NCBI RefSeq assembly: GCF_026210795.1
Contig: NC_089442.1
Coordinates: 1,798,001-1,862,000, forward strand
Length of the DNA stretch: 64,000 bases
Direction: 5' to 3'
Origin: Rhizophagus irregularis
Taxonomy: Eukaryota > Glomeromycota > Glomeromycetes > Glomerales > Glomeraceae
In this document: one piece after another, positions 11,201-64,000 of the stretch
Layout: each line of letters starts with the position of its first letter
Position numbering within the stretch: position 1 is the first letter of the stretch
Program-made: the position numbers and the translations under genes
The notes under the pieces: model-generated
Seen by the model: only the letters and a program-made list of their open reading frames with translations
Database searches by the model: none
Told to the model about the DNA's origin: nothing

Positions 11201-11409
11201 TTATCAGTTATATCATTAATATAACGTGATAAACATTTTTTGCAATATTGTTGTAAATAACAAAAAAGCGTTCTAATATATTTTTCTCCACAATAAACAC
11301 AATTTTCATCCCTACAATTAAAAGGAATAAATTTAATTGGTATAGGACTAGATTTTAATCTTGGTGTTGGATCAAAAGAATTTTCATCATTTGCATTTAC
11401 AATTTCCAT
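8287..11409 (-). CDS. kinase A: cysteine-rich N-terminus plus tyrosine-kinase-like domain
   Basis: Nine exons (11409-10309, 10224-10019, 9875-9217, 9121-9076, 8998-8894, 8816-8712, 8638-8567, 8494-8424, 8321-8287) join in frame to 799 residues. All introns are short GT-AG. Residues 1-290 hold about ten CxxC-type pairs, starting with C37-x2-C40, which suggests several zinc knuckles. The kinase domain follows: glycine loop KGGYGIIYKATW, ATP-anchoring K352 in VILKRF, catalytic D449 in HRDFHSGN, a DLG (D479) in place of DFG, and IAPE before the C-lobe. All core catalytic residues are present, so it is probably an active TKL/Ser-Thr type kinase. The tail (last six exons) is made of repeats SLSSQNL...YISAEL-DI-TER. 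No signal peptide or membrane segment is seen. The substrate is unknown. It forms an inverted duplicate with the gene at 24616. Confidence 0.88.
9880..10041 (-). repeat. local tandem duplication over an exon 2 splice donor
   Basis: About 80 bases are repeated head to tail (near 9880-9960 and 9966-10041). Each copy holds the end of kinase A exon 2 (TCAAAGGG on the minus strand), the donor GTATGC and the AT-rich start of intron 2. Only the outer copy, with the donor at 10018, is preceded by the rest of exon 2. The inner copy is a ready-made second donor inside the intron. Confidence 0.7.
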
Positions 11410-38561: not shown

Positions 38562-38766
38562 ATGAAAATTGTAAATATTACAAATTACAAAAAATCTTTT
38601 GATCCAACCCAAGATTAAAATCTAGTCCTATACCAATTAAATTTATTTCTTTTAGTTGGAATGATGAAAATTGTATTTATTGTGGAGAAGAATATACTAG
38701 GACGCTTCTCTGTGATCGCTTTGATACTCAAAAATATTGCAAAAAATGTTTATCACAGTACATTAA
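38562..38766 (+). pseudogene. kinase pseudogene, 5' fragment (before the Helitron)
   Basis: The start ATGAAAATTGTAAAT, the segment AAATCTAGTCCTATACCAAT and TATTGCAAAAAATGTTTATC match exon 1 of kinases A and B. One base is missing in GATCCAACCCAAG compared with GATCCAACACCAAG, which shifts the frame near codon 16. Homology ends abruptly after CAGTACATTAA at 38766, the left border of the Helitron. The next expected bases are at 53594 on the far side. Confidence 0.88.
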
Positions 38767-39106
38767 CTAGGGTAATTTGGTATTGTTAGTGAGTTATAAT
38801 ATAATTATTGCATTATTCAGTAATTATTTATATATATTTTAAGTAATATAATAGGGTTTATATTAAAAAGTTGATTTGTATTTTGTATTTTTATCAAATA
38901 ATAAATTTTATGGTTTATTTTGAGTTTATTAGTTTTATTAAAGAAATATTATATTTAATGATCAAAATGAATTGATCCTGTAACATGTTAAGTGGTAATA
39001 ATATAAAGATAAATATAAATATAATAGTTTGTATTAATTTTAGTAAAATATTAGATATGATGATAATGTTAAGTATAGTGATTTAAAAAAATTAGATTGG
39101 ATGCTA
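38767..39106. other. Helitron 3' terminal region
   Basis: AT-rich non-coding DNA between the CTAG terminus and the transposase stop codon. It presumably holds the transposase 3' UTR. No palindromic hairpin of the usual GC-rich type was found next to CTAG. Confidence 0.5.
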
Positions 39107-42100
39107 TTATGATAAATACATTGTATTGAACTTCTCCTGTAATCTATTTAATTCTGACAACATTGCATCATCTACTTTTATTGCATTTGGATCAAAAGAT
39201 TGGATTTCTAGATTTTCCCAAGATGTGGCACGACTAATTGATACATAAGATTGCCCATGAGCAAACATTTGTTCATCCAATGATACAGTTACATGGGGTA
39301 ATGTAAGGCCTTGTGTCTTGTGTACAGTTAGAGCAAATGCATTTTGAAGTGGAAATTGTGTTCGTTGTGCTGAAGCTCCATGTAAGTTAAAATAAGTTGT
39401 AATTTTTTCTACTATAACTTGATTTATCCCATTATTTATTGGAAATGCCACTTCTACTTGATTTTCATTTATTAATTTAGTTACCACACCAATTGATCCA
39501 TTACAAAGTTGTTCATTAAATAATTTGTTAGTTAGAAACATTACTCTTGCTCCTTCTCTTATTATTAATTCAGATGGTAAATTAGTATAATGTCTAAATT
39601 GTTTATCATATTCTTTTGGTATACATTCTTTTTCATTAACATAATCAATAGCTGTAGAAATTAAAAATCCAGAGGAGATATCTTTAAAAATAGGAAGATA
39701 ACCACAGATTAAATTATTAATTGAATCTGCACTATGACGAAATCCAAAAATATAGGTAGTATCAGTTGACATTTCATTGTTACTTTGATATGATTGCACT
39801 TTTTCATCAATTAATCTTCTTGTTTCTGAACTTATATTTCCTATTCGCATTTCTTCTAATATATTATAAAATGATCTATCTTGTTGGCGATGAGAAGTTG
39901 TAAGAAAAAGTGGGAAAAATTCTTGCCATTCTGGAGCATAAAAAACTTGTTTACCACTTACAGGTGGAAGTTGAGCAATATCTCCAATTAGTAAAGTTGG
40001 AATTCCACCAAAAGGTACTGGTGATTTGTTAATTTTTGCAAATAATGAACTAATAAAAGATAAAAGAATTGATGATACCATTGATACTTCTTCAATTATA
40101 ATAGCTTTAATCTGGCTAAGTTTTTCAAATTGTTGATTATTATAATGAGATAATGTTTCAAAATAGGTTTGAGTATTTCTAATATATAGTGCTGAATGTA
40201 TAGTTTTTCCATTTACATTTTGTGCAGCAACACCAGTAGGAGCCATCAATAAATATTCAGTTTTTTTATCAGCTAAAAAATTTTTAATTAGATGTATCAT
40301 AAAAGATTTACCAGTACCTGCTGAACCAGTTAGAAAAAAATAAGGATGTTTAGAATGTAATCTTTCTCCCCAACTATTTGTAAGTATATTCATTATTTTA
40401 TATTGATCTTCAGAAAGTAGCATAGATGAGAGATTTAAAGAGCGAATAGGTTGACGTAACAAATTATTTAACTGATTTCCAATAATTTCTTGTAAGTTTA
40501 CATGCAATGAAGATATCAAATTATTAACTAAATTTTGATAATTATTTGTATATCTTTGAATATTAGATTGCATTGAATTTTGTACAAAATTTAAAGTTAA
40601 TGAATATTCAGTAGGATATTTAGCTTCAAAATGAGCTTTATAAGTTTGATATAAGCTTTTTAAATCAGTTTCACTTCTAACAGGTAATCTAAGTAGTAAT
40701 TGTTGATAATAAAATGATTCTGATTGCTGAATTGTTAAATGTTGAAAACGTACAAGAATTTCTTTTTGTCTTTTTCTTACAAAGCGGTTTTTTTTATCTA
40801 TATAATATATTCCATTTTTTGGCTGACTTTTTTGTATAGTATAATTGCGATGATAAAAAGGATATGTCATACTATCAAATTCATTATCAGATGGACGATC
40901 AAAATATTTATCAATGGCATCATCCCAATAGGGAGATAATTGTTCTTCTTGTTGTAATAAATAAAGTGGTTTTATAGATTTAGTTCTTATTTCAGGAGGA
41001 ATAGAAGGAAGAAATTCAACAGCAATTGATGATCGACATATTGAATATCCAAGTAAAAGAATCATTAATTCCATTGATCCAAGACGTCTTGCTAAAATAT
41101 GTTTTCGAAATGCATCAGGTTCAGAAATATCAAAATATTCTGATGGTTCAGATTTTGTAACATACTTAGTCATATATTTTGCAAATTGATGTGTTGTTAC
41201 ATATTGAAAATTAATATGACCATTCCATAAAAATAATGTTGGTGCATGATATGGAATAACATATAAATCTTCTTCTTTAGTACGACGATAAATATATCTT
41301 AAGGAATTAGGATCTTCATGTGTAGTATCTGAATATGGTTGAGGAAAACCTTTTTTGCAACGTGAACCAGATGGAGCTGGACCTCCACAACGTGAATCAC
41401 AAGTATGAATTTGATGTTTTTTAACCAATTCATATAATTCTGGTTCAGAATTGGGATCTGGCATATCTGCTCTAATTACATTAGAATCAATTAATTCAGA
41501 AATTGATTTAGATAAATAAGCTATACCATGTGTATGAATTGCTCCACGATTTTGAAATTCATCACGTTCAAAATGATGTAACCAGTTACCCCAATCAGTT
41601 AAATTTGGATTTTTCCAAAGATATTGATGCATTGATGCTAAACGATGATGATAATGCAAGTAGGTATGAAATGGACGATTAGAAGGAAGGGGATCTTTGT
41701 TATCAGTTTTTAATAAAATATTTTTTAAATGTGACCAATGATTTTCAGCCATAGTCATAGTATAAAAAATTTGTGGTAAACCAAATCCTTGAACCATAGT
41801 ATTAATATGATGTTCTTTTTGGCGAAAATAAGAATCTCCTGTTCTAATATAAGAAGGTATAGTTGTTGTATTTTTTTCATTAATTATTGGACATCCAGTA
41901 TAAATACTATTGGTAATTAAATCTGCTGTTGTTAATTGATGTGATAGTGAAGTATTATATTGATTTAAAATTCGATTTCTATTTTGGTGATTTCTTAATT
42001 TTTCAATTGTTAAATAAATATAATGAGGCCAATACCAAGATAATCTCCATCTGGGATCAGGACAAAGTAGTAAAGATTTTGCATAATTACCTAAACTATC

Positions 42101-43210
42101 TGTAAATCGCCGATTTGTATTTTCATCATTTATATAAAATCCTTTTCCATATGGAAAAAGGTCAGGAAATAAAAGTGGTTCAATATTTTTATCATAAAAA
42201 GATATTGGTAATTTTTTATTATATGGATCAGTTAAAAATCCTGCCATTAATCGATTATAATGGTAATCTTCATTATGAATTTCTGCATCAAGTTCATAGG
42301 GAGGTAGTATTACAGCAGAAGGACGTGAATTAATGTTAAATAATGGTTGGTCTTGATTTTGAGAAGTATTACTAAGTGAGGCATTTGGAAAGATAATTGG
42401 TGCCCCATCCCATGTTCCATGATTAATTAAAGTTTGATATGGTTTAAAATAAGGATTATGATCTCGTAACCATCTTGCTGCATTATCAAGTGAAGAATGA
42501 TACCATGAATTTGATTGATTATTATTTAGTATAGCACCAATGGTACCAGAATATAATGCAAGTGCATTAATATTTTTTGAGTAGTTAAAGGTTCCAGTTA
42601 AGTGACGATAGTTTGTGTAAGCATTGCTATTTGGAACTCGGCCTAATGAACAACTAAGATGAATAGGTGAGAGATAAATTCGATGATATAAAGGCACACT
42701 TTGAATTTCATCAGGTATAGGATCAGGAATTGGTATTTTAAGATGATTATTAGAATTATAACAAGAAGAACATGTTGCTATACGTGCAGGTTGAGAATCA
42801 TCAGTATGAAAAACTAATGTGATTTGTGGATTATTTGAATAAGCTTCTTCTAAAGGATATTTAAATGTTCTATCATATAGTTCCCAATTTGCCTTTGTTG
42901 GATACTGTAAACGAGAACAATAACTACATGGAACACATGGATATTGAGTAAGAATAGTTGTATTAAACCGATCTTGTAAGTTACACAATTTTATAGAAGG
43001 TTGCCAGGATGGAAAATAAGCTCTAAAGGTGATGTTTGCAGAAGACAAAGATGGTTGAATTGGAATTCGAGAATGATCTGCATTAGCTTGTTGACGAACT
43101 GCATAACTTGAAAATAATGAACTATCAAAATTTTCATGTTCTGAGTTCAAATAAGATTCAGAATCATTATCTGATACTTCAACTCTCCAATGATTAACAG
43201 TAAAACTCAT
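39107..43210 (-). CDS. Helitron Rep-helicase transposase
   Basis: One uninterrupted frame of 1367 residues. An N-terminal zinc-finger candidate has C92-x2-C95-x2-C98 and C147-x2-C150. The Rep nuclease has the HUH motif H559-T-H561 in GAIHTHGIAYL and two tyrosines, Y679 and Y683, in AKYMTKYVTK, which nick DNA and hold the 5' end during rolling-circle transposition. The C-terminal PIF1/RecD-like helicase (about 940-1360) has Walker A GSAGTGKS (K968), EEVSM, LLIGDIAQLPPVSG, the TSHRQ motif, TVHKTQGLTLPHV and SYVSISRATSWENLEI. All catalytic motifs expected of an autonomous Helitron are present and there is no internal stop, so the protein may be functional. Length fits fungal Helitron transposases. 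It works in the nucleus on the element's own ends. Confidence 0.95.
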   Translation of the reverse strand: MSFTVNHWRVEVSDNDSESYLNSEHENFDSSLFSSYAVRQQANADHSRIPIQPSLSSANITFRAYFPSWQPSIKLCNLQDRFNTTILTQYPCVPCSYCSRLQYPTKANWELYDRTFKYPLEEAYSNNPQITLVFHTDDSQPARIATCSSCYNSNNHLKIPIPDPIPDEIQSVPLYHRIYLSPIHLSCSLGRVPNSNAYTNYRHLTGTFNYSKNINALALYSGTIGAILNNNQSNSWYHSSLDNAARWLRDHNPYFKPYQTLINHGTWDGAPIIFPNASLSNTSQNQDQPLFNINSRPSAVILPPYELDAEIHNEDYHYNRLMAGFLTDPYNKKLPISFYDKNIEPLLFPDLFPYGKGFYINDENTNRRFTDSLGNYAKSLLLCPDPRWRLSWYWPHYIYLTIEKLRNHQNRNRILNQYNTSLSHQLTTADLITNSIYTGCPIINEKNTTTIPSYIRTGDSYFRQKEHHINTMVQGFGLPQIFYTMTMAENHWSHLKNILLKTDNKDPLPSNRPFHTYLHYHHRLASMHQYLWKNPNLTDWGNWLHHFERDEFQNRGAIHTHGIAYLSKSISELIDSNVIRADMPDPNSEPELYELVKKHQIHTCDSRCGGPAPSGSRCKKGFPQPYSDTTHEDPNSLRYIYRRTKEEDLYVIPYHAPTLFLWNGHINFQYVTTHQFAKYMTKYVTKSEPSEYFDISEPDAFRKHILARRLGSMELMILLLGYSICRSSIAVEFLPSIPPEIRTKSIKPLYLLQQEEQLSPYWDDAIDKYFDRPSDNEFDSMTYPFYHRNYTIQKSQPKNGIYYIDKKNRFVRKRQKEILVRFQHLTIQQSESFYYQQLLLRLPVRSETDLKSLYQTYKAHFEAKYPTEYSLTLNFVQNSMQSNIQRYTNNYQNLVNNLISSLHVNLQEIIGNQLNNLLRQPIRSLNLSSMLLSEDQYKIMNILTNSWGERLHSKHPYFFLTGSAGTGKSFMIHLIKNFLADKKTEYLLMAPTGVAAQNVNGKTIHSALYIRNTQTYFETLSHYNNQQFEKLSQIKAIIIEEVSMVSSILLSFISSLFAKINKSPVPFGGIPTLLIGDIAQLPPVSGKQVFYAPEWQEFFPLFLTTSHRQQDRSFYNILEEMRIGNISSETRRLIDEKVQSYQSNNEMSTDTTYIFGFRHSADSINNLICGYLPIFKDISSGFLISTAIDYVNEKECIPKEYDKQFRHYTNLPSELIIREGARVMFLTNKLFNEQLCNGSIGVVTKLINENQVEVAFPINNGINQVIVEKITTYFNLHGASAQRTQFPLQNAFALTVHKTQGLTLPHVTVSLDEQMFAHGQSYVSISRATSWENLEIQSFDPNAIKVDDAMLSELNRLQEKFNTMYLS

Positions 43211-45388
43211 AGTTTTATATTATATGAAAAAATTAAAAATGTATTTATTAATGTAAGAATTTTAATTACATTTCAGTGTTAATATACCAAAATAAAGGGT
43301 CTTTTACTAAAACCCTATTTTTAAATTGTGAAAGGGTTTAACCAATAAAATTCCAGAAATCCAAAATTTTGGCTGAAATTTGTAATTTTGACTGAAACTT
43401 CAAAATTAGGCCGAATCTTAAGATAGGCCGAAACCTGCCAAAATATCCGATTCCCGAAGATCATATGTGTTATGTAATACATGGATTTTATTATCTTATT
43501 TTTCTTATTTGTAATTCTGGTAATTAATTACCAGTTTTTTCCTAAAAATAATGTAAAATACGTGATTATTCATTTTATTTATCATGTAATTAATGCAATT
43601 ATTATTCGCTATATATATGACTTAGCTGTTATATCTAAAATTATTTAATATATTGATAAATAATTAATATTATTTATTAACTATATATATATATTAAAAA
43701 CCACAGTTTTGGTATTGGCCATATAACTTACTGGCTGATCGATAATTGTATAAACTGAGTGAATTATTTAATATATTTAATAAATAAATTATAATTATGT
43801 GCAATATTTATTTATTATTAATATTAATTTAATATTATTTATTTACTATATATATATGCAGTTATGGTATCGGTTGTACAACTTACTGGCCGATTGATAG
43901 CTTTTTAAAAAATTGTGTAAACCGAGAAATATTCTGTCATACTGTCTGTATAAATAATTTGAATTATGTAACATGATCTGTCCATGTTATTTGATTAGCG
44001 GTCAGGTCATATGTTCATATGTACACAATTCTTTATTGCTAATATAATTTTTCCAGTTAATGAAATTTTAATCACTTTTTTTACAAAAAAACTCAGTTGT
44101 ATTAATAATAATTTTTCTATTCCCATCCTTTGGAATGAACGGTAACAAAAAAATTTGCTTATTCATCATATAAAATTTTTTATTAAGTCATATAGAATTT
44201 TGCGTATTTAGGGGTAAAATTTCCATAACGTCATATTTGTATTTGCGTAGCAAATAAATTAGAAATGAATAGTCATATATAGATTTGCGTAACAGGAGTA
44301 ATTTTTTATATATAAAAAATAAAATTAAATTTCACACGTTCAAAAATTTTTATAAAATAAATTTTTAAACTGATAATTTGTTTTCAAATACATTATTGAA
44401 CTTATTACATCTAATTCTCATAAAATTAGACATCATACTCATAAAAAAAATTGTATTTTTCACAATAATATTACTTTATTTTTTTATTTTTTTACTAACG
44501 TCGGTACGCTCGGAATGCATTTTAGTCAAATGTAATCGCCTTTTCAAGTTTAAGTAATGTTGTTCGGCGATGTCGAATCTACCTGCACGTAAATTTTCAT
44601 AGTAATCGGAGCAATACTTATGGAGTACTAATAATTTTCGCACTTTCAATTATTGCCGTATATTATCAAAATACAATGTTTCATTGATAATATATCCTGA
44701 TATATCCCGATATTTTACTGATTTTTATGTGTATTGTATATTATTATTTATTAATAAACATCATTTATTTATTTTATTTGCTTAAAACTAGATATTTATT
44801 ATATGTGTTACATTAATATTTTATCTTTCTAAACTATAAATGTTGTTAATGGTTTGGAACATTTTTCCAGTTGGTTCGATTCCAACAAACAACTTCTAAT
44901 ACGTCTCAGATGTCTTTGATATCTCATCGCGTCTAATGTCATTTGCGTTTCCTATCCAAAAAACGCTACAAAAATAAGAAGGCATTATTAGTTTTGTTTA
45001 ATAGCACCATTATCACCCAATTTAATAAAAAACCTACGTACCATAATAAAATCCTAGAAAACAAAGTAAATAATGGGGTTAGTACTACCATTAAAACCAT
45101 CACATAATTATCCAAAAAATTTATTGACACCATCCAAAAATCTAAAAAAAATAAAAAAAGGCATTAATATTATTAAACAATACACCATTAAACACCATGC
45201 AAAGGATCTACCATGAAGAATGTTGTTTAAATTTATCTGGGAATCTAAAAATAAAAAAAGGGATGTTAATGTAGTTTAATAACGTCACCATTAACACCCA
45301 CACAAATAAACCTACCATGAATAATTGTCCAAGAATCATCCATAAACCTAAAAAAAGAAGAAATAAAAGCCTTTCCAAAATACAGAAA
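43211..45388. other. Helitron non-coding region
   Basis: No gene is seen. 43665-43930 holds a degenerate direct repeat listed separately. 44140-44300 has repeated TCATATA...ATTTTGCGTA segments. The minus-strand frame at 45208-45399 overlaps the end of the coiled-coil gene in another frame. A small foldback ACCCTATTTTTAAATTG...AAAGGGTTT occurs at 43312-43340. Confidence 0.55.
43665..43930 (+). repeat. degenerate direct repeat (two units)
   Basis: Each unit contains ATTATTTATTAACTATATAT, a GGTATTGGCC or GGTATCGGTT segment, AACTTACTGGCYGATYGATA and TGTATAAACTGAG or TGTGTAAACCGAG. The two copies start near 43668 and 43832, so spacing is about 165 bases. Confidence 0.6.
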
Positions 45389-46245
45389 TCAAGTGGCAAA
45401 TTTTACTTTCTTTTTAGATTTACTTTTAGTCAGTTGTGATGGTATAGGAGTAGCGGGAGTAGTAGAATGAGAACGAAGTTGACGAGTTTTAATAGTATAA
45501 TTCTCTTCTAATAAAATTTCTAATTAAAGAAATAATATATAATAACAGTTGAAAGATATAATATTGAAATATACCTTTTAGTTCCATATACTTTTTACCC
45601 AACATTCTATGTTCTTTTCGCCACTTCGTTAAATCATCTTCAAGGTCTAATATTTTTGATCGTGCAATAGTCAGATCATCTTCCAGCTGAGACCTTAGTT
45701 GAATACTGTCATGAAGGGAGTCTTGTGCCTCATTAAGTTGTTTCTGAATATGGTTAAGATGACGACAACAACTTTCAAGTTCCTCTGAATTAAATTAAAA
45801 AAAAAAATATATGTATATATGTGTATATGATAATAATTGGATAGTTAGTTCGAGAACTAAGTGGATAAAGTCGATAGTTTAGAAAAGATCTGCAGAAGGT
45901 AAAATCCTTTTAAGAACTGGACACTGGGAATATGAATACTCCGTCTACAGGTAATGAACCGTCAAGAACCATGCCCTGAGAATACGAATATACTGTCTGC
46001 AGGCAACCTCTTTTAAGATCATTTAGTAAACCTTGCGTACAATACCCACCTTCAAGAAGTTGAACCTTTGGTTTTCTGGCAGCTTTCAAAGCCTTCAAGC
46101 GATTTTTAGATTTTCGGTTAGAGGTGGCAGAACGTCGACAGCGTTTCTTATTTGATGTAGCAGCAGTAGTAGAAGGACGAGCAGCAGTAGAAGGATGAGC
46201 AGCAATTAAAGCAGAAGTGGTGGTAAATTTCCTAGTGGCAACCAT
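45389..46245 (-). CDS. Helitron cargo: basic coiled-coil protein
   Basis: Three exons (46245-46050, 45784-45575, 45519-45389) give 178 residues. Donor GTGGGT and acceptor TTCAG join in phase 1, and the second intron (55 bases, donor GTATAT) also in phase 1. Residues 1-65 are alanine/threonine/serine-rich with basic clusters (NKKRCRRSATSNRKSKNRLK), a likely nuclear signal or DNA contact. Residues 66-140 form a predicted coiled coil (ELESCCRHLNHIQKQLNEAQ, then SQLEDDLTIARSKILDLEDD). The C-terminus is basic (TKSKSKKKVKFAT). The family is not recognised. It is transcribed in the same direction as the transposase. A role in dimerisation or regulation inside the element is only inferred. Confidence 0.72.
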
Positions 46246-47722
46246 TTTGAGAAGGAACAAATAGATGTGTAGTAAAGGTGTAGTGAAGGAAAATTTTGAA
46301 AAATATTAAGTAAAAACAAGAAAGGAAGGAAAAATGAAGATACTTATATAATGAAGAGATGTGACGCGTAAACATGTAAAAATTAGCAAAACAAAATATT
46401 ATGAAAAAGATTGATAATAAAAGGATAAATGTTACATGAGGGAAAATTCTGGAAAAGGAAAATCATATCAGAAAAATTATTTTCAGAACAAAGGAAAATA
46501 GTCTAAAAATAGTAATACTCGATAAGTTAATTTAAGGAGTTAAAATAATAAAATTAATAAGTCGCGACCATTAATTTATTTTTAGAAATAATTAGGATTA
46601 TTTAATTTTAAAAATTAAGATACTGATTTCAATAATTTAACCTATAATTGTAAATTATGTAAAATAATGAAAGGAACTTTTAAAGCCCCAATAATAGAAA
46701 TCTATCAAATGAATTTATAAGGAGAGATTTGTAAGAACACAAAATTTAAGCGCGAGGGATGTCTGTAGTATCACAAATTAGTAGTAGGTAGATCACTTAT
46801 AATTGGCGAGATAGAATCCAAAATCATTTGCTTATTGATCATAGTAAAAAATTTTGATTTTAATGTGACCTTTATATGTATTGTTCGGGGTCCTGATGCA
46901 GCTATCCAGTTATTTTCAGTTTTTGTAATTACAAATTTTTTTTAAATGAATATTATTCCTTTTTCAGTCAGTCATTTTTTTTCCATCATTGTAATTCTTT
47001 TATTTATTTAGTATTTTTAATAATTTTTTTATCACTATAAAAATTTGTTTTTAAATTTTCTATTAATAAAAGTGTTAATGACGATAATTATGATGATAGT
47101 GAGGAATAATAATAATGAGAAATAATTACAATAGTTAATCCAATGAGAATTAATTCTAATATCATGTGATTTAAATAATGATACTATTTAGGAAATAAAT
47201 GATGTAATTATGCAGGGCAAAATATTCGCGATCAAAGTCCAGTTAACATATAATTATGCAGGCAATGCAGGCAATTGTAATTTTATATTATATTTTAAAA
47301 CATTGCAATTTAATTAAGGAATAAGGATAAGCATATTATATTTTAAAAATAGTGCAATTTAATTAAGGAATAAGGATAAGCATATTATATTAGAATCAAT
47401 AAGTTTTAAGGACTTCGTTAATTAAATTTATTACATTAGATCAATAAATTTTAAGAACTGCATTACAAAAAAAATTTAGAACTGCGTTAATTAAATTTAT
47501 TACATTAGAATCAAAACTGTGTTTATTTTGTTACAAATACTTTAATTATGTAGAATGTTATTATGTTCATCAGTTCATGTTTTAAACATTATAACGAATT
47601 TTAAAATTATTATAAATATTATGAAATTTGAATTTTTTTTTCGCAATTCAAACCCAAATTGTATTTTAATTTTCAAATTGTATTTAATTTTCAAGTTACA
47701 AAAAAATCATAAAAAATAAAAA
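46246..47722. other. Helitron non-coding region
   Basis: AT-rich spacer between the divergently transcribed coiled-coil and Myb/SANT genes. It presumably holds both promoters. A short direct repeat with TGCAATTTAATTAAGGAATA then AGGATAAGCATATTATATT occurs twice (about 47305 and 47351). No gene is seen. Confidence 0.5.
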
Positions 47723-48385
47723 ATGGCAGCATTAGTACCTTTTGTTCCACCGCCACCACCAGTATTCCAATGGTCGATTAATGCTGCTAGGCAGTTAATT
47801 GCGGAGCGAAGAAACTTACATCAGCAATTTGAAAGAATTGCAAATCGCTACCATGTTAATGTATGGACAATAATAGCAAATAGGGTGTTCACTGCAACGG
47901 GATTTGCAGCGACACCCAGGCAGTGCTATACAAAATGGAATGCCCTCAAACAAGGTTATGAAAACCTCAGTAGAATAATAAATAATAATGATGATGGCAT
48001 TCCTATTACAAGCCCAAATAGTTTCGATAGAGCGTGTTTTGCCGATATGAACGATGAATTCTGGTTACAAACTGGTAATTATTATTAATTATTATTTTAA
48101 ATTAATTTTATTTAGGCAATTCATTCAATTCATTAATATTTTTATTGGATTTTAGATCTGTTTAGACGAGAGTATCGACGGCGGCATGCTGCGCATGATC
48201 GACGTCAATATGAATATAGATTGCAAAGGGAAAGAAGGAGGTCGCGATCTAGGTCTCGATCAAGGTCTCGATCAAGAAGTAGATCAAGAAATAGAGATAG
48301 AAGACGAGATAGAAGTAGAGATAGAAGACGGGACAGAAGTAGAGATAGAAGAAGAGGTAGAAGCAGGTCCCCACATAGAAGATAA
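47723..48385 (+). CDS. Helitron cargo: Myb/SANT-like protein with arginine-rich RS/RD tail
   Basis: Two exons (47723-48074 and 48156-48385) give 193 residues. Donor CTG-GTAATT and acceptor TTTTAG join in phase 1. After a proline patch (VPFVPPPPPVFQW), residues 16-85 have the trihelix/Myb pattern: W17, IAERRNLHQQFERIANRY, VWTIIANRV, and ATPRQCYTKWNALKQGYENL. This is a DNA-binding fold common in transposon-associated proteins. Exon 2 switches to a basic tail of about 75 residues, made of RSRSRS and RDRRRDRSRDRRR repeats ending RSPHRR, similar to RS domains of splicing factors. Frame-shifted reading of this exon would give an acidic tail instead. The gene runs opposite to the transposase. Target sites and function are unknown. 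Confidence 0.75.
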
Positions 48386-50972
48386 TTTTAATTTTTATTA
48401 TATTTTTAATCGTATATTTTATTAGTTTAATATTAAATATTATAAAATAAATATTTACATACAAAAAATCATATTGTCTTTATTCTTATAAATTGTTTAA
48501 ATGCCAAAACTCTAATTAAATCATATAGAAAGTATTGCCGAAACCCTCTAGTTTTGGCAAGCAACCTTATTTATTAAGTAATCTTAAATAAAAATTTAAA
48601 TTTTAAAAATACATTAAAGAATGTAAATTTATTTGCAATTCAGTATAGTATGATCATAAAAAATATAAATTACTCCACTGCATTTTCATGAAAATTGGAT
48701 TTTGACTGCTAAACAACTTTTAATTAATAAAAGAAGTCGATTTCCTTTGACCAAAATGTTCAAAATACGTTCTGAAGTGACAAAACAGAAAAAATAAAAT
48801 TCATGAATGAGTACCGTTGTGAAAAACGTGAATAACTCTTCAAGTATTAACTGTACCTTCATGAAAATTAATATCCAAGCAGATTATGACCCACTGAAAA
48901 ACTTTCAATTAATATAAGAAGTCAATTTACTTTGACTAAAATGCTCAAAATACGCTCTGAAGTGACAAAACGGAAAAAATAAAATTCGTGAATGAGTATC
49001 GTTGTGAAAAACGTGAATAACCCTTCAAGTATTAACTGTAACTTCATGAAAATTATTATCCAAGCAGATTATGACCCACTGAAAAACCTTCAATTAATAT
49101 AAGAAGTCAATTTACTTTGACTAAAATGCTCAAAATACGCTCTGAAGTGACAAAACAGAAAAAATAAAATTCGTGAATGAGTATCGTTGTGAAAAACGTG
49201 AATAACCCTTCAAGTATCAACTGTACCTTCATGAAAATTATTATCCAAGCAGATTATGACCCACTGAAAAACTTTCAATTAATATAAGAAGTCAATTTAC
49301 TTTGACTAAAATGCTCAAAATACGCTCTAAAATGACAAAACGGAAAAAATAAAATTCGTGAATGAGTATCATTGTGAAAAACGTGAATAACCCTTCAAGT
49401 ATTAACTGTACCTTCATGAAAATTATTATCCAAGCAGATTATGACCCACTGAAAAACTTTCAATTAATATAAGAAGTCAATTTACTTTGACTAAAATGCT
49501 CAAAATACGCTCTGAAGTGACAAAACAGAAAAAATAAAATTCGTGTTGTGAAAAACGTGAATAATTCTTCAAGTATTAACTGTACCTTCGTGAAAATTAA
49601 TATCCAAGTAGATTATCACCTGCTGAACAACATTCAATTAATATAAGAAGTCAATTTACTTTGTCTAAAGTGCTCAAAATACGCTCTGAAGTGATAAAAC
49701 GGAAAAAATAAAATTCGTGAATGAGTACCGTTGTGAAAAACGTGAATAACTCTTCAAGTATTAACTGTACCTTCATGAAAACCAATATTCGAACTGATTA
49801 TTACTCGCTGAACAACATTCAATTAATATAAGAAGTCGATTTACTTTGACTAAAGTGCCGAAAATACGCTCTAAAGTGATAAAATAGAAAAAATAAAATT
49901 CCATTGTGAAAAACGTGAATAACTCTTCAAGTATTAACTATACCTTCATGAAAATTAATATCCAAGCAGATTTTGACCCGCCAAAAAACTTTCAATTAAT
50001 ATAAGAAGTCGATTTACTTTGACTAAACTGCCCAAAATACGCTCTGAAGGTAAAAAAAAATTTGTAACTTAGTACTATTATGTAAAAATGTAAATAACTC
50101 CAAAAATATTAACTGTGCTTTCATGTAGATTAATATCTTAACAGCTTCAAACTTGCTGAACTACTTTCAATTAAAGAGCAAGATTTACTTTGGCCAAAAT
50201 GCTCAAACCATAATTTGAAATATGTGTAAACAAACTATAATATTTGTTTATATTTAAATTCTGAGTTATTTAATTTAAATGTGTTTGTTTATATTTAAGG
50301 AAAAAAAATAAAATTTTACTTCTATTTTATTAGGTTTTTGTAAACGAAAAGACAAAAAAATAATCAGCTGAAAAAATAAAAAAATTCTTTGTTAATAACC
50401 GTAATACGTGATCACATGTTGCAATATTAAAATCGGAAATCCTATATTTAAATTGGTAATACGTATTACATATATGACCAATAGGCCAAATTATATCTCC
50501 TGCTATTACAATTGTAAAATTGTAAAATAATATTAAAATTATGAATAAATTAAAAGTAAATTGGCAAAAATTCTAACCTGTATTAAGCAGTATTAAGAAA
50601 ATTTTTTGATAAATTTAGATTAGATTTATGTGTAGCATAAATAATTATGTTAACGTGTACATTAATTAGTTACGAAATCACTCGTTATAAAAAGATTTAT
50701 TTTTTTTAATAAAATTAAACCATTATATCATAATTTCAGATCATAAATTTTATGTTTTTATTATATATAAGAAAATATATGTATATTCTTTTTTTAAAAG
50801 AAGTGAAACAAATTATTATAGAAAAAAAATATTTTTTTAACAAAAAAATGTGGATCCTTGTGAATAATACTAAATTTTCTGTTACTAATTTCTTTAAGAT
50901 TTAATTTCTATAATTTATGGAAATGATTTTTGATATATTTTCTTATTATTTGTATAATACGCAAAATAATTT
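48386..50972. other. Helitron non-coding region with satellite
   Basis: Mainly the 185-bp satellite (about 48650-50240), listed separately. 50240-50972 is AT-rich DNA without a gene, apart from the untranslated tail region of the OB-fold-like gene at its right end. Confidence 0.6.
48650..50240 (+). repeat. 185-bp tandem satellite, about nine copies
   Basis: The marker AATAAC(T/C)CTTCAAGTATYAACTG starts units at 48831, 49016, 49201, 49386, 49560, 49745 and 49918, with a diverged one near 50093 and partial units outside. Spacing is 185 bases except where units have lost 11-12 bases (174 and 173). The central units are almost identical and the outer ones more diverged, as expected from unequal exchange. 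Each unit contains AAGTCAATTTACTTTGACTA and TGAAGTGACAAAACRGAAAA. No open frame crosses units. Confidence 0.92.
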
Positions 50973-51035
50973 TTATTTCTTTCCGCGTCCTCCACGACCT
51001 CCTTTTTTATTATAACTTCTTTTCGGTTTAATAGG
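50973..51035 (-). other. in-frame RGG-type tail after the stop codon
   Basis: Directly downstream of the TAA of the OB-fold-like gene and in the same frame, 20 codons encode PIKPKRSYNKKGGRGGRGKK before the next stop. Such glycine/arginine tails bind nucleic acid. One C-to-T change (CAA to TAA) would explain the separation. Readthrough is the alternative. Confidence 0.65.
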
Positions 51036-52162
51036 TTAATCAATTTCACCATCACACAAATCAGATAATTGGCGTTTTTTAGTTTTATTAGCATTAATAG
51101 GCGTATTATCATCTATCATAACCAGGTCTATAGAAGATTGATTTGTTCCTACTGTATCTTCTTTGTCTGAATCATTATCACTTTCTTCTTCATATGCATT
51201 TTCTATTTCTGTGGTATTTGAATCCGATTTTGGGGTAATATGTGTTTTTACTGGTGAATTAGGAGTTGATTTATTCCTCCTTTGAGCAAATGCATTGGTG
51301 GTTGATCTTTGTGGTGAGGGTTGGTAATTGTTACTTGAAGTTGAAGTACGAAATCGAACATCATAATCGATCAACTTTGCATCTATCTGTACGTATGTTG
51401 TTGATCCGTCTGTATAAATTGCCTCAAGAAATCCAGCGATGAAAAAATTGGCAAATTCACTCCATTTATCAGAAAGATATTCAAGCCATTTTGATTCGCT
51501 TGAATATCCAATCTCAAAATTAATGTAACGTGCAGCAGAATGAAATGGTGAATAGATCAACGATTTGGTTTTAACAAAATTCATATTATTTGATGTTGAC
51601 AATGGTTCACAAGCAGAAGTAGTGATATGAACGAACGGCTTTGTTGATGGAATTTTTTCAGGTTCCCATTTCAAACGTTCTCCATTACGTCCTAATTGAG
51701 ATTCTAGCACACATGCCGCTTCAACTAAGAGCTGTTTATATGAAAAAGACAAATGAAAATATTATATTTGTAATTAATATTAAAAAAATTATTTAAATTA
51801 TTATCATTTTTATAAATTTTTATAATTATTATTATTAGATTATTATCATTTTTATAATTATTATTATTAAGTAAATTATAAAATTATTATTAAAATTATT
51901 ATATGTCATTATTCCTTAGATACATACAAAAATTACTTACCATTAATTTATTGTCATCAATAGTGAACTTTCCACCAAAATGGACTAAGTCCCCTTCTTT
52001 AAACGCCTCATTATAATCGTGCAGCGCGTTTGAAAACTGTTTGAATCCAAAAACAGGATTTTCATTGGAAACTTTCTCACGATAGATAGCGTCCCCAAAT
52101 GCTGTGTGAGAGGATTCTCTTAAACGTACTACAAGTGCGATAACTGACAGAGTAGCGGTCAT
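51036..52162 (-). CDS. Helitron cargo: OB-fold-like, possibly ssDNA-binding protein
   Basis: Two exons (52162-51941 and 51731-51036) give 305 residues. Donor ATG-GTAAGT and acceptor AACAG join in phase 0, reading DDNKLM-LLVEAACVLES. Residues 1-90 show the beta-rich pattern TLSVIALVVRLRES...FKEGDLVHFGGKFTIDDNKL, which resembles an OB fold. OB-fold (RPA-like) proteins accompany Helitrons in plants and would protect the single strand during rolling-circle transfer; here that is inference. The second half (200-305) is low-complexity: serine/threonine/asparagine-rich, then acidic (EEESDNDSDKED), then basic (NKTKKRQLSDL). After the TAA at 51036-51038 the frame stays open for 20 more codons, coding a basic KKGGRGGRGKK tail. 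Confidence 0.7.
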
Positions 52163-53593
52163 TTTTTTTAATTTTTTTGATAAAAAAAAATTGAAAGATT
52201 TTATATTATTTTGAGTGTAGAGAAAAAAACACCTGCAAACTATCTATAAATGTGAATAAAGCATTACAGATTTTTATATAATTGGTAAAGTACAAGATGA
52301 AAAAACTTGATTATCATAATTAATTGTATCACTTCAAGAAAGGGGGCCAGCGTAAAATCTACTCAATTTTGCCAGATTTTCTAAAAGGTTTTTGAAAAAT
52401 CTGGTAAATTTTTTAAATCTTGAATAATTTTGGACATTTTACTGCAGATTGTAGTATTTTTCAGAAGATTTTCAAAATTTTTCTAAAACTTTTTGTACAC
52501 TGAAGGGAACTCATCCATTAAAATTCCAATGGTGCATTATCCTCATAATCAAATTCTATAATCCCAAAAGTGTTAAATATCAAAATTTTATAATCCATAA
52601 GACAAATTATTGTCAAAATTTAATTAACACAAGGATCTTATTAGCAGGATTAACTGGTTAAAACTGTTTTGACCATAAATATATCAGTAATTCTGATCAG
52701 ATTTACTTAATGCTGCCCAGAGACCTAGTAATTCAGTTATATGTTTCCAAACTCAAAATTTAATACCAAATTTTTTCCTATTTATTAATAATGGTAGTGA
52801 TTCAAATAGTCTTTTTTCAACTAAATGTATTAGCGTTAGTAAAATCAAAAATTGGTACAATTTTAAGTAAAAAAAAATTTTAAATATTTTTCATATTAAC
52901 TGGTTAAGGTTTTTTTGGATGGTTCTAACCTCTACTTATTATTTATTTTATTTATTTTATTTTTTTTATAGAGAGAAATTGTCATAATACATGTATTATT
53001 TTGAAATTAACATTTTAAAAATTAAATTGAAAAACTATAATTTATTAATTAACGATAAAACGTTTTTTGTTAAAATTATTTAAAAATTTTTTAAATTATA
53101 GCGAAAATGCTACAACAGTAAATAATATTATAATAGCGAAATTGATCAGCAAACAAATGAAAATATGCAAATATTAAATGATGTCTCAATTTAACAGGTA
53201 TTTTCAGTGGCACAGGAAGAGTTTTTGCGAAAAGTTGGCATTAGAAGTTTTTTTCATTGTCATTGACATTGACATTGTCATTGACATTGACATTGACATT
53301 GACATTGACATTGTCATTGTCATTGTCATTGTCATTTACATATTAATAAAGTTATATAAGATTAATTTGAGAGTTTTTTACCAAAAAGGAAATTTTTTTA
53401 TAAAAAGAGAAATGATTTTCAATTTCGAGGCAATTCAGCAGGTGTTTTAATAACAAATTGAGAAATGATTTCCATAGAAAATCTCGTGACAAAATTTATA
53501 ATAAATTTAAAAATAAATGATCAACAAATGATCAACAAAATCATTACTAGTTTTATAAAAAACGCCCAATAATATCTTTTTATTGTTTTAAAA
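52163..53593. other. Helitron 5' terminal region
   Basis: AT-rich, no gene seen. It contains a hexanucleotide microsatellite (53258-53340), and the frame at 53178-53450 is its translation. The last bases before the host sequence, ATCTTTTTATTGTTTTAAA, form the putative 5' end of the Helitron (on the minus strand). Confidence 0.5.
53258..53340 (+). repeat. (ATTGAC/ATTGTC)n microsatellite
   Basis: About 13 hexamers alternate between ATTGAC and ATTGTC without interruption, ending at CATTTACAT. It lies about 250 bases inside the Helitron's right border. Confidence 0.9.
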
Positions 53594-53606
53594 TGACATA
53601 ACTGAT
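53594..53606 (+). repeat. target-site duplication, left copy
   Basis: TGACATAACTGAT (with preceding AAA up to 16 bases) is repeated at 54654-54666. The left copy adjoins the Helitron border and is the first kinase sequence after it. Confidence 0.85.
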
Positions 53607-54650
53607 GAACTCTCTCTCCTTTCTCTCACTTTTCATCATGGAAATAATATTTCGCTCATTTTTTCATACATGTATTTAAAGAAGTTTGCCCTAAATACTC
53701 GGTTAAACACCAACTTGGTTTCCGCTACTTGTCTCTATTGGGTCCAGTGGCACTTATTCATATAGTTTGAATGACTTTGGTTATAAGGTTGAAGATTCCA
53801 AGCTGGAAGGAAGAAATTTCCATTTCGCTCAGTGGTGAAAGTTCGTTTTCTTAATAATAAGGTGTTGTTCCTGGTGATAGTTTGGTGAAGTTTCCCTCTT
53901 TACCTAGGTTTTTACTCCTTCGGGTTGGTTTTCCTAGGGTTATGAATTTTTCTTATTTTTTTTGGTGAATTTTTCTCGTCTTTCTTTTTTGCCTTCTACT
54001 TTTTGGAGTTTTTCTGGGGAGTAGGGGGGTATCCCAAAATTGATCGACATCAGGTGGTTTGTAGATCTTTTCTTTTGAGAGAGTTGGGTGTAATTTAAGG
54101 GGGGTGCAGATCTTGGTGATCAGTTTTTGGTCAGGTGAGATCAAGGTGGCACATGTTTGGACTATCATGGGTTTTTTACTTAGGCTCAAAGTTTCGCAGT
54201 TCGTCTATTAGTTTAGGCTTCCTTTGATGGTGGAATTGTGTTATGATATCTATTAATTTAGGTTTGCATAGTTTATTAACTCTGGTAATATAGTCACTTG
54301 GAGAATTTATTTTTACATCGACCAGTGTGGGGGATTTTTATCAACCAAGGGCTGGCGGTTTTAGTTCTGATAATCTGCAGGGTACGGGCTTCAACTTACC
54401 AAAACTTAGGCTTGCTTAAGCGAGAGTATGGGAGGCAGTGGCGTTATCTGGGCTTTGTGTAATGGGGTGGATTTTTCCTTATACTTCATATAGTACCTTT
54501 TTCCGGGTAAATGCCCACCGGTTTGAGTAGATTATTTTTGCGTGTAGTTTGTTAGTATTTTTGTCAATTTTGGCTTATATGTGATTTTCTACTTATAATC
54601 ACGTCCATGTTAGATTTCTAACTGGAACCCATTAATAAAAATAAAAATAA
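53607..54650 (+). mobile_element. LINE-type retroposed insertion, 1.04 kb
   Basis: Inserted into the kinase fragment, with a 13-16 base target duplication (53591-53606 and 54651-54666) and a 3' end of repeated AAAAAT units (ATTAATAAAAATAAAAATAA). These are hallmarks of target-primed reverse transcription. The body is richer in G+C than its surroundings and holds the foldback CCGGGTAAATGCCCACCGG near 54504. No reverse transcriptase is present, so it is a 5'-truncated or non-autonomous copy. The minus-strand frame at 53953-54189 has no recognised domain. It starts GAACTCT, like the retroelement at 57734. Confidence 0.8.
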
Positions 54651-54653
54651 AAA

Positions 54654-54666
54654 TGACATAACTGAT
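54654..54666 (+). repeat. target-site duplication, right copy
   Basis: Second copy of TGACATAACTGAT, after the A-rich tail of the LINE-type insertion. Kinase coding sequence continues from here as AATAATATGTATTTAGAC. Confidence 0.85.
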
Positions 54667-56981
54667 AATAATATGTATTTAGACGTATATATTTATACAA
54701 TGGATTTAGAATGTAAAGAGCATGAAATAAGTAGGACAAAAGTACCACAAAGTATTCAAGATTGCTGTGGAAATTGTGTGAGAATTTTATGTTTTAAACA
54801 AATAAATGGAGATATTAGTAATAATAGACTTGATGAAAAAAATCTCACTTTATACAATAAGGTAATTAAAAGTGAAAGAAATTGCAAATTATGTGGAAAG
54901 TTATTATATCAAGGAACAGGTAAATGGAATAGTATATCATTTAAATTATGTTCAGTTTGTTATCGAATTTCTTCGGAATTGATAGAATCAACCTTGGTTA
55001 AAAAACAAATTTCAATTCTTTACTTACCATGGTGGCATAATTGTTTTAGGTGTAATATTTGTCATTCAGAGTTAACATTTACATCAGACTGTCAAAAATA
55101 TTGTGCAAGTTGTTATATGTTTTATGTTGGATGCAGGTACTGTTTAACAACAAATATTATTTTTGGACCTATAGTTCAATCTCAATGTAAAAAATGTAAA
55201 AGAATATCAGTTATCATAAACAGCAGTGTAAAAAGTGATATTGATGATTTTCTTTTTTATAATGTTATACTTGATAATTTAGATAAATTAAAAATAAAAG
55301 TTAAGTCCGCAAATATTCCTAAATATTTTATACAAGACAGTATATTGGGTTATATTTTTAGAGAAAATTATGGTGAAATTAAATGGATATCATATTCTCA
55401 ATTTACGGATTTTAAAGAAATAGCAAAAGGAGGATATGGTATTATATATAAAGCAACTTGGTTGAGTAACAATGAAACTATCATTCTAAAAAGATTTAAT
55501 AATTCTAAAAATATTGGTAAATATTTTTTAAATAAGGTAAATAATTTAAATATCAATAATTTCTTATTAAATAAATTTAATTTAATTAATTTAATCTAAA
55601 TTTAATAGTTAAAATCATTACAACATTGTATGATAAATAATTACAAATTAATTCGAACTTATGGCTTTACAAAGGATCCTAAATTAGAAGATTATATATT
55701 AGTTATGAAATATGCGTCAGAAGGAGATTTACATAAGTATTTACAAAAGAATTTTACATACATTAAATGGAATGAAGTATTAAGTTTTTTAGTGAAAATT
55801 TCAAAGGGGTATTTATGTTTTATATTTTATATATCTTATATTCTTTAAATTTAGGTTATTAATTATTTTTTACTTTTAGACTTGAAAACATTCACAATGC
55901 AGATTTTATACATCGAGACTTCCATAGCGGAAACATATTATTTCTTGTCGATAGTATAAGTATGGCCAGATGGCAATCAAAAAAATGTAGTATAGATGTT
56001 AAGATTGGAGATCTAGGGTTATCTCAAGCTGTAAATAGCAAAACATCAAATAATGAAATATATGGAGTAATACCTTATATTGCGCCTGAAATATTTAAAG
56101 GATCAGAATTTTCTAAAGAAGCTGATATTTATAGTTTGGGCATGATTATGTGGGAATTTACAACGGGCTGTAAACCTTTTGATAATGTTAAACATGATCA
56201 TAATCTTATTTATAAAATTCTTGATGGAGAATGACCTAATATTACAGAGATACACCGGAATGTTACGCTAATTTAATGAAAAGTTGTTGGGATCCCGATC
56301 CCAAAAAGAGTCCTTCTATAGGAACAATTAATTTAACTCTTAGAGATTGGGTGTTTGGGATAAAATTACTAAAGCAGAACTTAATCAAGCAAATGCAAAA
56401 AGAATGGAACTTATAAAATCAAAAAAAATTGGTCCCGAATTCGCTGAAAGACGACATTCGGGAGCCATTTATGCAAGTAGGCCATTAAGCGCTTTAATTT
56501 CTAAATATTCATCCACTTATTCATCTTCAGCAATTTCGTTTGGTAAGTTATCACGAAAAAAATTATTGTAAATTAAATATTTTATATGAAATTTATATGC
56601 AATTTATAAGAAAAACGTTATACGTTTTAGATTCCAATTATATCTCAGCAGAATTGGAGCTTGATATTGACACTGAAAGGTATTTAAACTTATATGAAAA
56701 GAGACTTTCAAATTAATACTACTACGATTTGAATTTATTAATTTTTTATTTCATCATCACAAAATTTTAAGTTCTAGTGCAGTCCAAAATTTTTCAACTT
56801 CTTTAAAACAGAGAAAACATGAAGTACTTACAAACTTTGAAACTCATGACAAAGGCGGTAAATATTACTTATGTTTAATATTTGTTTTAATATTTATTCT
56901 TATTCTATTTTTATCTTTTTAATCAAATTTAAAATGTACAAAATAGGAAAACATATTAAAACTAGTTCTAGTTATCCATAG
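54654..56981 (+). pseudogene. kinase pseudogene, 3' fragment (after Helitron and LINE)
   Basis: It begins at codons DITDNN, exactly where the 5' fragment at 38562-38766 stops. Exons 54654-55536, 55609-55808 and 55880 onward match the paralogs, with KGGYGIIYKATW, HRDFHSGN and IAPE. Inactivating changes: TGA at 56232-56234 in DGE-R-P (CGA in paralogs), a one-base loss in ACAGAGATACACC near 56247, and loss of the AG acceptor before the tail repeat exon near 56750. The last exon of exon 1 also has AAG instead of GAG at the donor. The tail end GKHIKTSSSYP-stop is still present. It is non-functional. Confidence 0.9.
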
Positions 56982-62543: not shown

Positions 62544-64000
62544 ATGGAATTTACAAACATAAACAATGAAAATTCCTTTGATCCAACACCAAAATTGAAA
62601 TCTAGTCCTATACCAATTAAATTTGTTTCTTTTAATCATGAAGATATAAAATGTATTAATTGTGGAGAAAATTATATAAAGGCACATTTTTATTGGCAAT
62701 ATTATTGCAAAAAATGCTTAATAAGTTATCTTAACGAAGTAACTGATAATAATTTATACTTAGACGTATATTACACAATGAAAGTAAAATGTGATGAACA
62801 TGAAATAAGTCAGATAAAAGTACCAAAAACTAATCAAGAATGTTGTGGTAATTGTTTGATAATTTCATATTTTAGACAAATATCTACTTATAACTATCAA
62901 ATGATCGAAAGTGAAAAAGATTGTGTATTGTGTGGGAAATCATTATATCAAGGAAATGACAAAAAGATTACTCGTCAGTGTAAATTATGTTCAGATTGTT
63001 ATTTAATTTCTTCTGAATATATAGAATCAACCTTGGTTAAAAAGAAGATTTTCATTCTTTATTTACCATGGTGGCATGTTGATTTTTGGTGTAAAAATTG
63101 TCTATCAGAATTAATATTTACATCAGATTGTCAGAAATATTGTGAACATTGTCTCATATTTTATGTTGGATGCAGATACTGTCTAACAACAAATATTGTT
63201 TTTGGACTTACGGGTCAAACACAATGTAAAAAATGTAAAAGAATATCACTCGTCAAAAATGGCGATAGAGAACTTGATGATTTTCTTCTTAATAGTAATA
63301 TATATGATAATTTAAAGTTATCTGAATTCATGAATACCGTAAAGAGTATAGACAAATATTTTGATCCATTAAGTTTATTTAACTCTATCTTTGAAAAAAA
63401 AAGTATTATAGAACCAATTAAATGGATACCATATTCTCAATTTACAAATGTAAAAGAAATGACAAGAGGGGGATTTGGCATTATATACCAAGCAACTTGG
63501 TTAAGTAATAATGAAACCGTTATTTTAAAAAGATTTGAAGATTCTAAAAATATTGATAAATATTTTTTAAATGAGGTAAATGTTTTTAAATACTTTCTTG
63601 AATAATATTAAAAAAAAACAAATTTAATTCTTAATTTTTAATTTGGTAGTTAAAATCATTTCAATATTGTTTTGGATTAGACAACGAACATATTATCAAG
63701 CCTTATGGCTTTACAAAAGATGCTGAATTAGAGGATTACATATTAGTTATGAAATATGCAGCAGAAGGAGATTTACACAAGTATTTGCAAAATAATTTTG
63801 CGAAAATTACATGGGATAAACAAAAACTAGATATTTTATGGCAAATTTCAAAGGGGTATTTATATTTTAAATTTATTTATTATATTCTTTATGTTTAGGT
63901 AATTAATTATTTTTTTTTTTATTTATTTATTTAGTCTTGAAACAATTCATAATAAAGATTTTATGCATCGAGATTTTCATAGTGGAAACATATTATTTGA
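62544..64000 (+). CDS. kinase D, 3' end outside the window
   Basis: Three exons visible: 62544-63575, 63650-63855 and 63935 to the window edge. Start MEFTNINNENSFDPTPKLKS aligns with MEIVNANDENSFDPTPRLKS of the paralogs, so the twelve upstream codons of the open frame are leader. Exon 1 ends KYFLNE-GTAAAT; exon 2 is 206 bases, as in kinases A and B. The CxxC array is kept (CINCGENY, YCKKC, CCGNC, CVLCG, CSDCY, CKNCLSE, CKKCKR). The glycine loop is RGGFGIIYQATW, and the HRDFHSGN catalytic loop ends the window. It is the most diverged of the four kinase copies, with no breaks in the visible part, so it is probably functional. Confidence 0.9.

What the first reader, a model, noticed from the sequence alone, without database searches (positions are those of the whole stretch)
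38767..53593. 14.8-kb multi-gene Helitron with a base-exact readable empty site in a kinase exon
Seen: kinase exon 1 homology stops after ATTAA at 38766 and resumes with TGACATAACTGAT at 53594, with no missing or duplicated codon relative to paralogs at 10309-11409 and 24616-25725. The insertion point is A^T, there is no target duplication, and the end near the transposase stop is CTAG on the transposase strand. Known: Helitrons insert between A and T and end in CTRR. The whole interval therefore behaves as one element, including genes not usually carried. The non-TC 5' end (TTTAAAACAATAAA) is unusual and could mark a distinct lineage.
Basis: partly seen in the sequence, partly recalled or inferred. 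Interest (0 to 1): 0.9.

Follow-up and report, generated by a model that had tools for sequence, protein, structure and literature searches.

The report
Fungal Helitron carrying own ssDNA-binding gene
A 14.8-kb jumping gene of the rolling-circle (Helitron) type sits inside a kinase gene of what looks like the symbiotic fungus Rhizophagus irregularis; it has nearly identical full-length copies elsewhere in the genome and carries, beside its transposase, a gene that may make its own single-stranded-DNA-binding protein.

Summary
Confirmed and corrected. 38767-53591 is one mobile element: six other copies in the same genome follow it over all 14.8 kb, mostly at 97-100%, and at least 26 shorter copies share its left end. 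In the 27 copies read at both ends the termini are identical, 5'-TTAAAACAATAAA...CCAAATTACCCTAG-3' on the transposase strand, and host TT follows (27 of 27). Four of eight other insertions searched have paralogous empty sites, one letter for letter, without target duplication. The nearest published anatomy is the ~14-kb proto-Helentron of Phytophthora infestans. The Myb/SANT-RS module (47076-48569) is debris of another high-copy repeat; the coiled-coil gene is private to this family. The gene at 51036-52162 is an old partner of the transposase: it lies upstream in the same orientation in four related elements, and a low-confidence model of it resembles bacterial and mitochondrial SSB and PriB. 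The kinase exon really resumes at 54654, because a ~1.05-kb retroposon-like insert was overlooked.

The parts
38767..53591 (-). whole rolling-circle element (14,825 bp core), read on the strand of its transposase
   Evidence: 27 of 27 copies read have identical termini; six other full copies follow it throughout
38767..38780 (-). 3' terminus CCAAATTACCCTAG, followed by host TT
   Evidence: invariant in 27 of 27 copies; a relative on contig C16 has CTAGGGTAAT after AA in the window's orientation, near its transposase end
53579..53591 (-). 5' terminus TTAAAACAATAAA
   Evidence: invariant in 27 of 27 copies
53592..53593 (.). two extra T (transposase strand) at the 5' junction of this copy
   Evidence: compare empty site of the two paralogs
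39107..43210 (-). Rep (HUH, two-tyrosine) + PIF1 helicase transposase, 1367 aa, intact
   Evidence: Pfam Helitron_like_N 4.1e-16, PIF1 2.1e-26; HTHG and KYMTKYVTK motifs; full frame in 3 of 7 full copies; dN/dS 0.24 and 0.27 against two relatives
45389..46245 (-). coiled-coil protein gene, three exons (178 aa), matched only in the 7 full-length copies
   Evidence: 48 of 48 candidates scored; only sub-threshold Pfam coiled-coil matches
47076..48569 (+). fragment of another repeat family with a Myb/SANT-RS gene (47723-48385); passenger
   Evidence: 31 of 40 scored genome matches start at exactly 47076; elsewhere it follows the tail of another gene; right edge read by eye from the alignment
48715..50049 (.). 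tandem array, 185-bp unit, 7.3 copies; also in the one gene-less copy read
51036..52162 (-). two-exon gene for a protein with a predicted SSB/PriB-like OB fold; the window copy stops 21 codons before the other six full copies
53255..53341 (.). CATTGA microsatellite in the 5' subterminal region
38609..38766 (+). target: first part of kinase-gene exon 1 (decayed copy)
   Evidence: tblastn with the paralog at 24616
53607..54653 (+). second, retroposon-like insert with A-rich tail, between 13-base direct repeats 53594-53606 and 54654-54666
54654..55596 (+). target: rest of kinase-gene exon 1

Best explanation
A recently active, potentially autonomous rolling-circle transposon of the Helitron superfamily, in a Glomeromycotina lineage with proto-Helentron-like ends (5'TT, 3'CTAG, inserted N^TT). 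Shown: one unit, fixed ends, TT target, no visible target duplication, several near-identical copies, shorter relatives with the same ends. From established knowledge of Helitrons: the Rep (HUH/Y2) domain nicks at the ends, the PIF1 helicase peels off one strand, and a copy is joined into the target in front of TT. Inferred: the partner gene at 51036-52162 makes an OB-fold protein that coats the displaced strand and may help the helicase, doing the job that RPA-like proteins are thought to do for plant Helitrons and Helentrons. The Myb/SANT-RS piece and probably the coiled-coil gene are passengers; the short copies are deletion derivatives moved in trans.
For: Identical termini and host TT in 27 of 27 copies; TT is 17.5% of flank dinucleotides. 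Empty sites for 4 of 8 other insertions searched, one identical across the joint, three with small differences near it, plus two kinase paralogs. Six copies follow the window over 14.8 kb; five copies differ by 0.02-0.32% in the 4.4-kb transposase end. Rep-Hel domains and motifs. The partner gene lies upstream in the same orientation, 2.1-3.7 kb from a transposase match, in 4 of 4 related elements compared, and as neighbouring locus tags in R. clarus. SSB/PriB-like fold. A gene-less 3,866-bp copy keeps both ends.
Against: The SSB-like fold rests on a model of mean pLDDT 51.7 (68-89 per ten-residue block over residues 81-200); no Foldseek match reaches E 0.001 (best 1.9e-3), and no Pfam or PDB sequence match supports it; a second model from 13 rows was worse (43.7). 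No transposition or expression was observed. The transposase frame is broken or interrupted in 4 of 7 full copies. Three of seven further loci of the partner gene could not be checked for a transposase next door.
Confidence: 0.82

Rival explanations
1. A canonical Helitron1 (TC...CTRR, A^T) that captured host genes.
For: CTAG followed by T in 27 of 27 copies; the window's own site is A^T by its paralogs.
Against: 5' TT, not TC, in 27 of 27; base before the element T 13, A 10, G 4 as read (the window counts as T because of its two extra T); an empty site G^TT identical on both sides; no 3' hairpin; only the helicase part matches Helraiser, whereas a plant protein matches it end to end with 587 bits.
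Confidence: 0.04
2. A Helentron/Helitron2 element whose true polarity is reversed: CTAG is its 5' end and the TTTTAA side its 3' end with a hairpin and asymmetric inverted repeats.
For: TT target as in Helentrons (PMC5148889, passages); a 6-bp-stem hairpin CAATAA/TTATTG close to the TTAA end; reversed frames are reported for such elements (PMC5148889, passages); HINE copies with differing numbers of terminal T are reported (PMC4067079, passage), as in this copy.
Against: Fold of that end no better than shuffles (38 of 300 reach it on one strand, 25 of 300 on the other); subterminal inverted repeat no better than chance (453 of 500 shuffles); no endonuclease.
Confidence: 0.13
3. Two elements side by side, a Helitron ending near 43.3 kb and a separate 10-kb element.
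For: The middle holds a piece with its own boundaries (47076-48569). A C4 relative at 99% stops matching at 43199, and four diverged relatives (77-81%) stop at 43215-43216, next to the transposase start.
Against: Six other copies carry both halves in the same order at the same identity; the four diverged relatives share only the transposase at DNA level but carry the partner gene a few kb further on; the C4 stretch fetched (19.3 kb) shows no other right end of this family.
Confidence: 0.01

Closest known systems
proto-Helentron-Pi of Phytophthora infestans (PMC4067079, section 11 read)
   Same: About 14 kb, several genes besides Rep/Helicase, 5'TT and 3'CTAG, no target duplication, no C-terminal endonuclease.
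   Different: Reported to insert A^T, here N^TT; transposase 1,783 aa there, 1,367 here; its SET-domain gene was not among the Pfam hits of the ORFs scanned here; an SSB-like gene is not mentioned in that section. The sequences were not compared.
Helentrons and their HINE/DINE derivatives (PMC4067079, section 5 read and passages)
   Same: TT target, no target modification, non-coding derivatives with tandem repeats and microsatellites, an ssDNA-binding companion gene.
   Different: Endonuclease domain, subTIRs and an RPA70-type companion there; here no endonuclease, no subTIR above chance, and a companion without RPA match.
Helitron2 / FoHeli of Fusarium oxysporum (PMC5148889, passages)
   Same: Fungal, non-canonical ends, recent activity, non-autonomous copies.
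   Different: Ends TCAG/ATTTT or TGCCT/CTCCTGT, ATIRs, target TNAT^T for two subgroups; no RPA-like gene found there.
Plant Helitrons with RPA-like genes (Mothra and kin, PMC4683698, abstract and passages)
   Same: Rolling-circle element with its own ssDNA-binding gene; that paper argues for at least three independent acquisitions.
   Different: Companion there is RPA-related; here no RPA match and a weakly supported SSB/PriB-like fold, so possibly a further acquisition.

Membership tests
Helitron superfamily | Rep (HUH, two-Tyr) plus PIF1/RecD helicase in one protein | tested here: met
Helitron superfamily | no target-site duplication | tested here: met
   empty sites, (a 2-bp TT duplication with an element starting AAAAC would be letter-identical and cannot be told apart)
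Canonical Helitron1 | 3' CTRR | tested here: met
   CTAG in 27 of 27
Canonical Helitron1 | 5' TC | tested here: not met
   TTAAAAC in 27 of 27
Canonical Helitron1 | insertion between A and T | tested here: not met
   preceding base T 13, A 10, G 4 of 27 as read; G^TT empty site
Canonical Helitron1 | hairpin 10-12 nt before the 3' end | tested here: not met
   no structure predicted in the last 40 nt; z 0.13 for the last 60
Helentron | TT dinucleotide target | tested here: met
   27 of 27
Helentron | endonuclease domain fused to Rep/Helicase | tested here: not met
   no such Pfam domain among 16 families listed for the 1367-aa protein at E up to 1
Helentron | subterminal inverted repeats | tested here: inconclusive
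   best candidate reached by 453 of 500 shuffles
proto-Helentron | 5' TT and 3' CTAG, multi-gene, no endonuclease | tested here: met
proto-Helentron | insertion between A and T | tested here: not met
   N^TT
proto-Helentron | Rep/Helicase groups with Helentrons | tested here: inconclusive
   own clade (100*), apart from both; one Helitron1 row on a long branch, midpoint root, P. infestans protein not available
SSB/PriB OB-fold proteins (partner gene) | OB fold closest to SSB/PriB | tested here: inconclusive
SSB/PriB OB-fold proteins (partner gene) | binds single-stranded DNA | not testable with these tools
   needs a binding assay
RPA (partner gene) | RPA OB domains by sequence | tested here: inconclusive
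   no RPA family among Pfam hits of 36 homologues at E up to 0.1 and no PDB sequence match at E up to 1; absence of a match does not exclude distant kinship

The most novel reading that the evidence does not exclude
The Helitrons of arbuscular mycorrhizal fungi acquired, once and long ago, an SSB-type (bacterial/mitochondrial-like) single-strand-binding protein in place of the RPA-type partners of plant Helitrons and Helentrons. Its variable tail holds a conserved LSDLC motif that, like the tail of bacterial SSB (recalled, not tested), could recruit the element's own helicase. That would be a further independent acquisition of this function by rolling-circle transposons and a self-contained Rep-helicase-SSB replicon inside a eukaryotic genome.
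Probability: 0.4. Interest if true: 0.72.

Novelty: new variant of a known kind. Interest (0 to 1): 0.5.

Why it matters
Search tools built on TC/CTRR and A^T miss non-canonical Helitrons (so PMC5148889, passages); here both ends and the target rule are read from 27 copies and empty sites from four more insertions besides the window's, which gives a firm handle for annotating R. irregularis and its relatives. Near-identical copies, three of them with an intact transposase frame, make live transposition in an obligate symbiont testable. A lineage-wide SSB-like partner gene, if confirmed, would show again that rolling-circle transposons gain from their own ssDNA-binding protein, and that it can come from another source than RPA.

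Tried and rejected
Rejected: canonical Helitron1 membership (ends, target, hairpin, Helraiser match); two-element composite; the idea, from a first BLAST pass, that the middle is more diverged than the ends: most of that difference came from mis-paired tandem units and is small, where single windows still dip to 76-96%. Subterminal inverted repeats that I saw by eye did not beat shuffles. The second structure model of the partner protein (13 rows) was worse than the first and was not searched. No RPA chain stands among the 50 rows shown by Foldseek or the 50 by VIA-align; this excludes nothing. A profile search found, among records that name an organism, only Rhizophagus and Glomus cerebriforme, and many records without organism name (only the 8000 candidates sharing most words were scored).
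Full report
Where it is. Its contig C6 (5,728,094 bases) has the length of the contig that bears a named Rhizophagus irregularis protein, P0121, so I take the organism to be R. irregularis, an arbuscular mycorrhizal fungus (inference).

One element with fixed ends. The left 734 bases match 8 places, the window included, at 99-100% (one from base 5 on), and bases 1 to 301-311 match 26 more (40 of 47 candidates scored, so lower bounds). Of 42 matches listed for the right 700 bases, 35 end at bases 698-700 (40 of 180 candidates scored). I read both ends of 27 copies: 7 full-length ones, the window included, and 20 shorter ones; the others were left out for want of letters. In all 27 the transposase strand begins TTAAAACAATAAA, ends CCAAATTACCCTAG, and is followed by host TT. 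TT is 17.5% of dinucleotides in the flanks. The base before the element is T 13, A 10, G 4 as read; the window counts as T because of its two extra T, and by its paralogs it would be A. The element proper is therefore 38767-53591 and the target rule N^TT.

It is one unit. Seven places, the window included, run through 43.0-43.8 kb at 100%. The six other full copies follow the window across all 14.8 kb, mostly at 97-100% per 250 bp, with some windows of 76-96% at indels and repeats, and with nested inserts in three of them. Five copies differ in the 4.4-kb transposase end by 0.02-0.32% in ten pairings, so the family moved recently. The transposase frame is whole in 3 of the 7 full copies, the window's among them. 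A C4 relative at over 99% stops matching at 43199, and four diverged relatives (77-81%) stop next to the transposase start; the C4 stretch fetched shows no right end of this family.

Empty sites. I searched eight flank pairs (of 26 printed) against the genome; four found places that span the joint, and I read six of those places. For the C18 copy the empty site is identical across the joint, G^TTTATAAA. The C7b site gives A^TT with a 3-base gap a few bases away, the C9 sites T^TT with single-base differences next to the joint, and for C10 the paralogs read A^CT where the filled site has A^TT. No target duplication is seen; a TT duplication with an element starting AAAAC would look the same. 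In the window, the kinase paralogs give CA^TTAAT while the filled site has two extra T at the 5' joint; variation of terminal T number between copies of a family is reported for HINE elements (PMC4067079, passage).

The target. Homology to the paralog at 24616 stops at 38767 and goes on in the same codon at 54652-54654. The TGACATAACTGAT at 53594 is the first of two direct repeats around a 1,047-base insert with an A-rich tail; the second begins at 54654. Which insertion came first cannot be told. The paralogs' next exons score as protein kinase; the interrupted copy's own kinase pieces lie in shifting frames, so it is a decayed gene.

Short copies. C10 keeps the left 300 bases, most of the 185-bp tandem array and 52905-53591, with scraps of the middle, and lacks all four genes. 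Only this one was read through; others were judged by spacing.

Kinship. The query matches Helraiser (7lcc) only in the helicase, whereas a plant protein, P0117, matches it end to end with 587 bits, which is why I label P0117 Helitron1. Two quick trees (39 of the 120 proteins listed plus the query; 28 of them plus the query) put the query and its fungal relatives, some named as Glomeromycotina and some unnamed, in one clade (100*) on a long stem, apart from the endonuclease-bearing Helentrons and from P0117. With one Helitron1 row on a long branch the deep order is unsure. The nearest anatomy in print is proto-Helentron-Pi: about 14 kb, several genes, 5'TT, 3'CTAG, no endonuclease, but A^T (PMC4067079, section 11 read). 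I therefore say proto-Helentron-like and do not file it as a member.

What is in print. In two R. irregularis papers the word Helitron stands twice each, as a class in TE lists or filters (PMC11075540, PMC8647823; passages). Searches for Helitron with Rhizophagus irregularis, with Glomeromyco-, with OB-fold, with ssDNA-binding protein and RPA, with HELIANO, for Helentron (25 of 44 listed), Helentron with Helitron2, and proto-Helentron, seen as titles and beginnings of abstracts, showed none that describes this element or an SSB-like Helitron gene. That library lacks most subscription papers. [quoted passage not shown]

How it works, by steps. Shown: unit, ends, target, recent copies, shorter copies with the same ends. 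From known Helitron biology: Rep nicking, helicase unwinding, strand transfer. Inferred: the partner protein coats the freed strand; short copies use the proteins of full ones. Unknown: polarity proof, current activity, role of the coiled-coil gene.

Noticed in passing
L034-L037 (C6:1403853-1449217, element position ~9697): A ~30.9-kb Maverick/Polinton-like element with ~490-bp inverted ends (99.4%), Pox_D5-like helicase and chromo-integrase genes sits inside another full copy of this Helitron.
   Followed up: partly
53607-54653: Retroposon-like insert with (TAAAAA)n tail and 13-base direct repeats; by eye its sequence recurs in the flanks of the C20 and C25 Helitron copies.
   Followed up: partly
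47076-48569: Myb/SANT-RS gene module of a high-copy family (210 first-look candidates); in three copies read elsewhere it follows the tail of another gene, as in a two-gene DNA transposon.
   Followed up: partly
51036-51041: The window copy of the SSB-like gene stops 21 codons earlier than the six other full copies.
   Followed up: yes
C4:4444047-4450492 (L041): A relative over 99% identical that holds the left end and transposase, with an insert, but neither the cargo nor the right end within the 19.3 kb fetched.
   Followed up: no
2457-3341: ORF with a weak match to the Tse2 ADP-ribosyltransferase family, just below Pfam's cut-off (25.7 against 26.6 bits).
   Followed up: no
62544-63995: A further relative of the kinase-family first exon (59% to the copy at 24616), so at least four copies lie in this window.
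   Followed up: no
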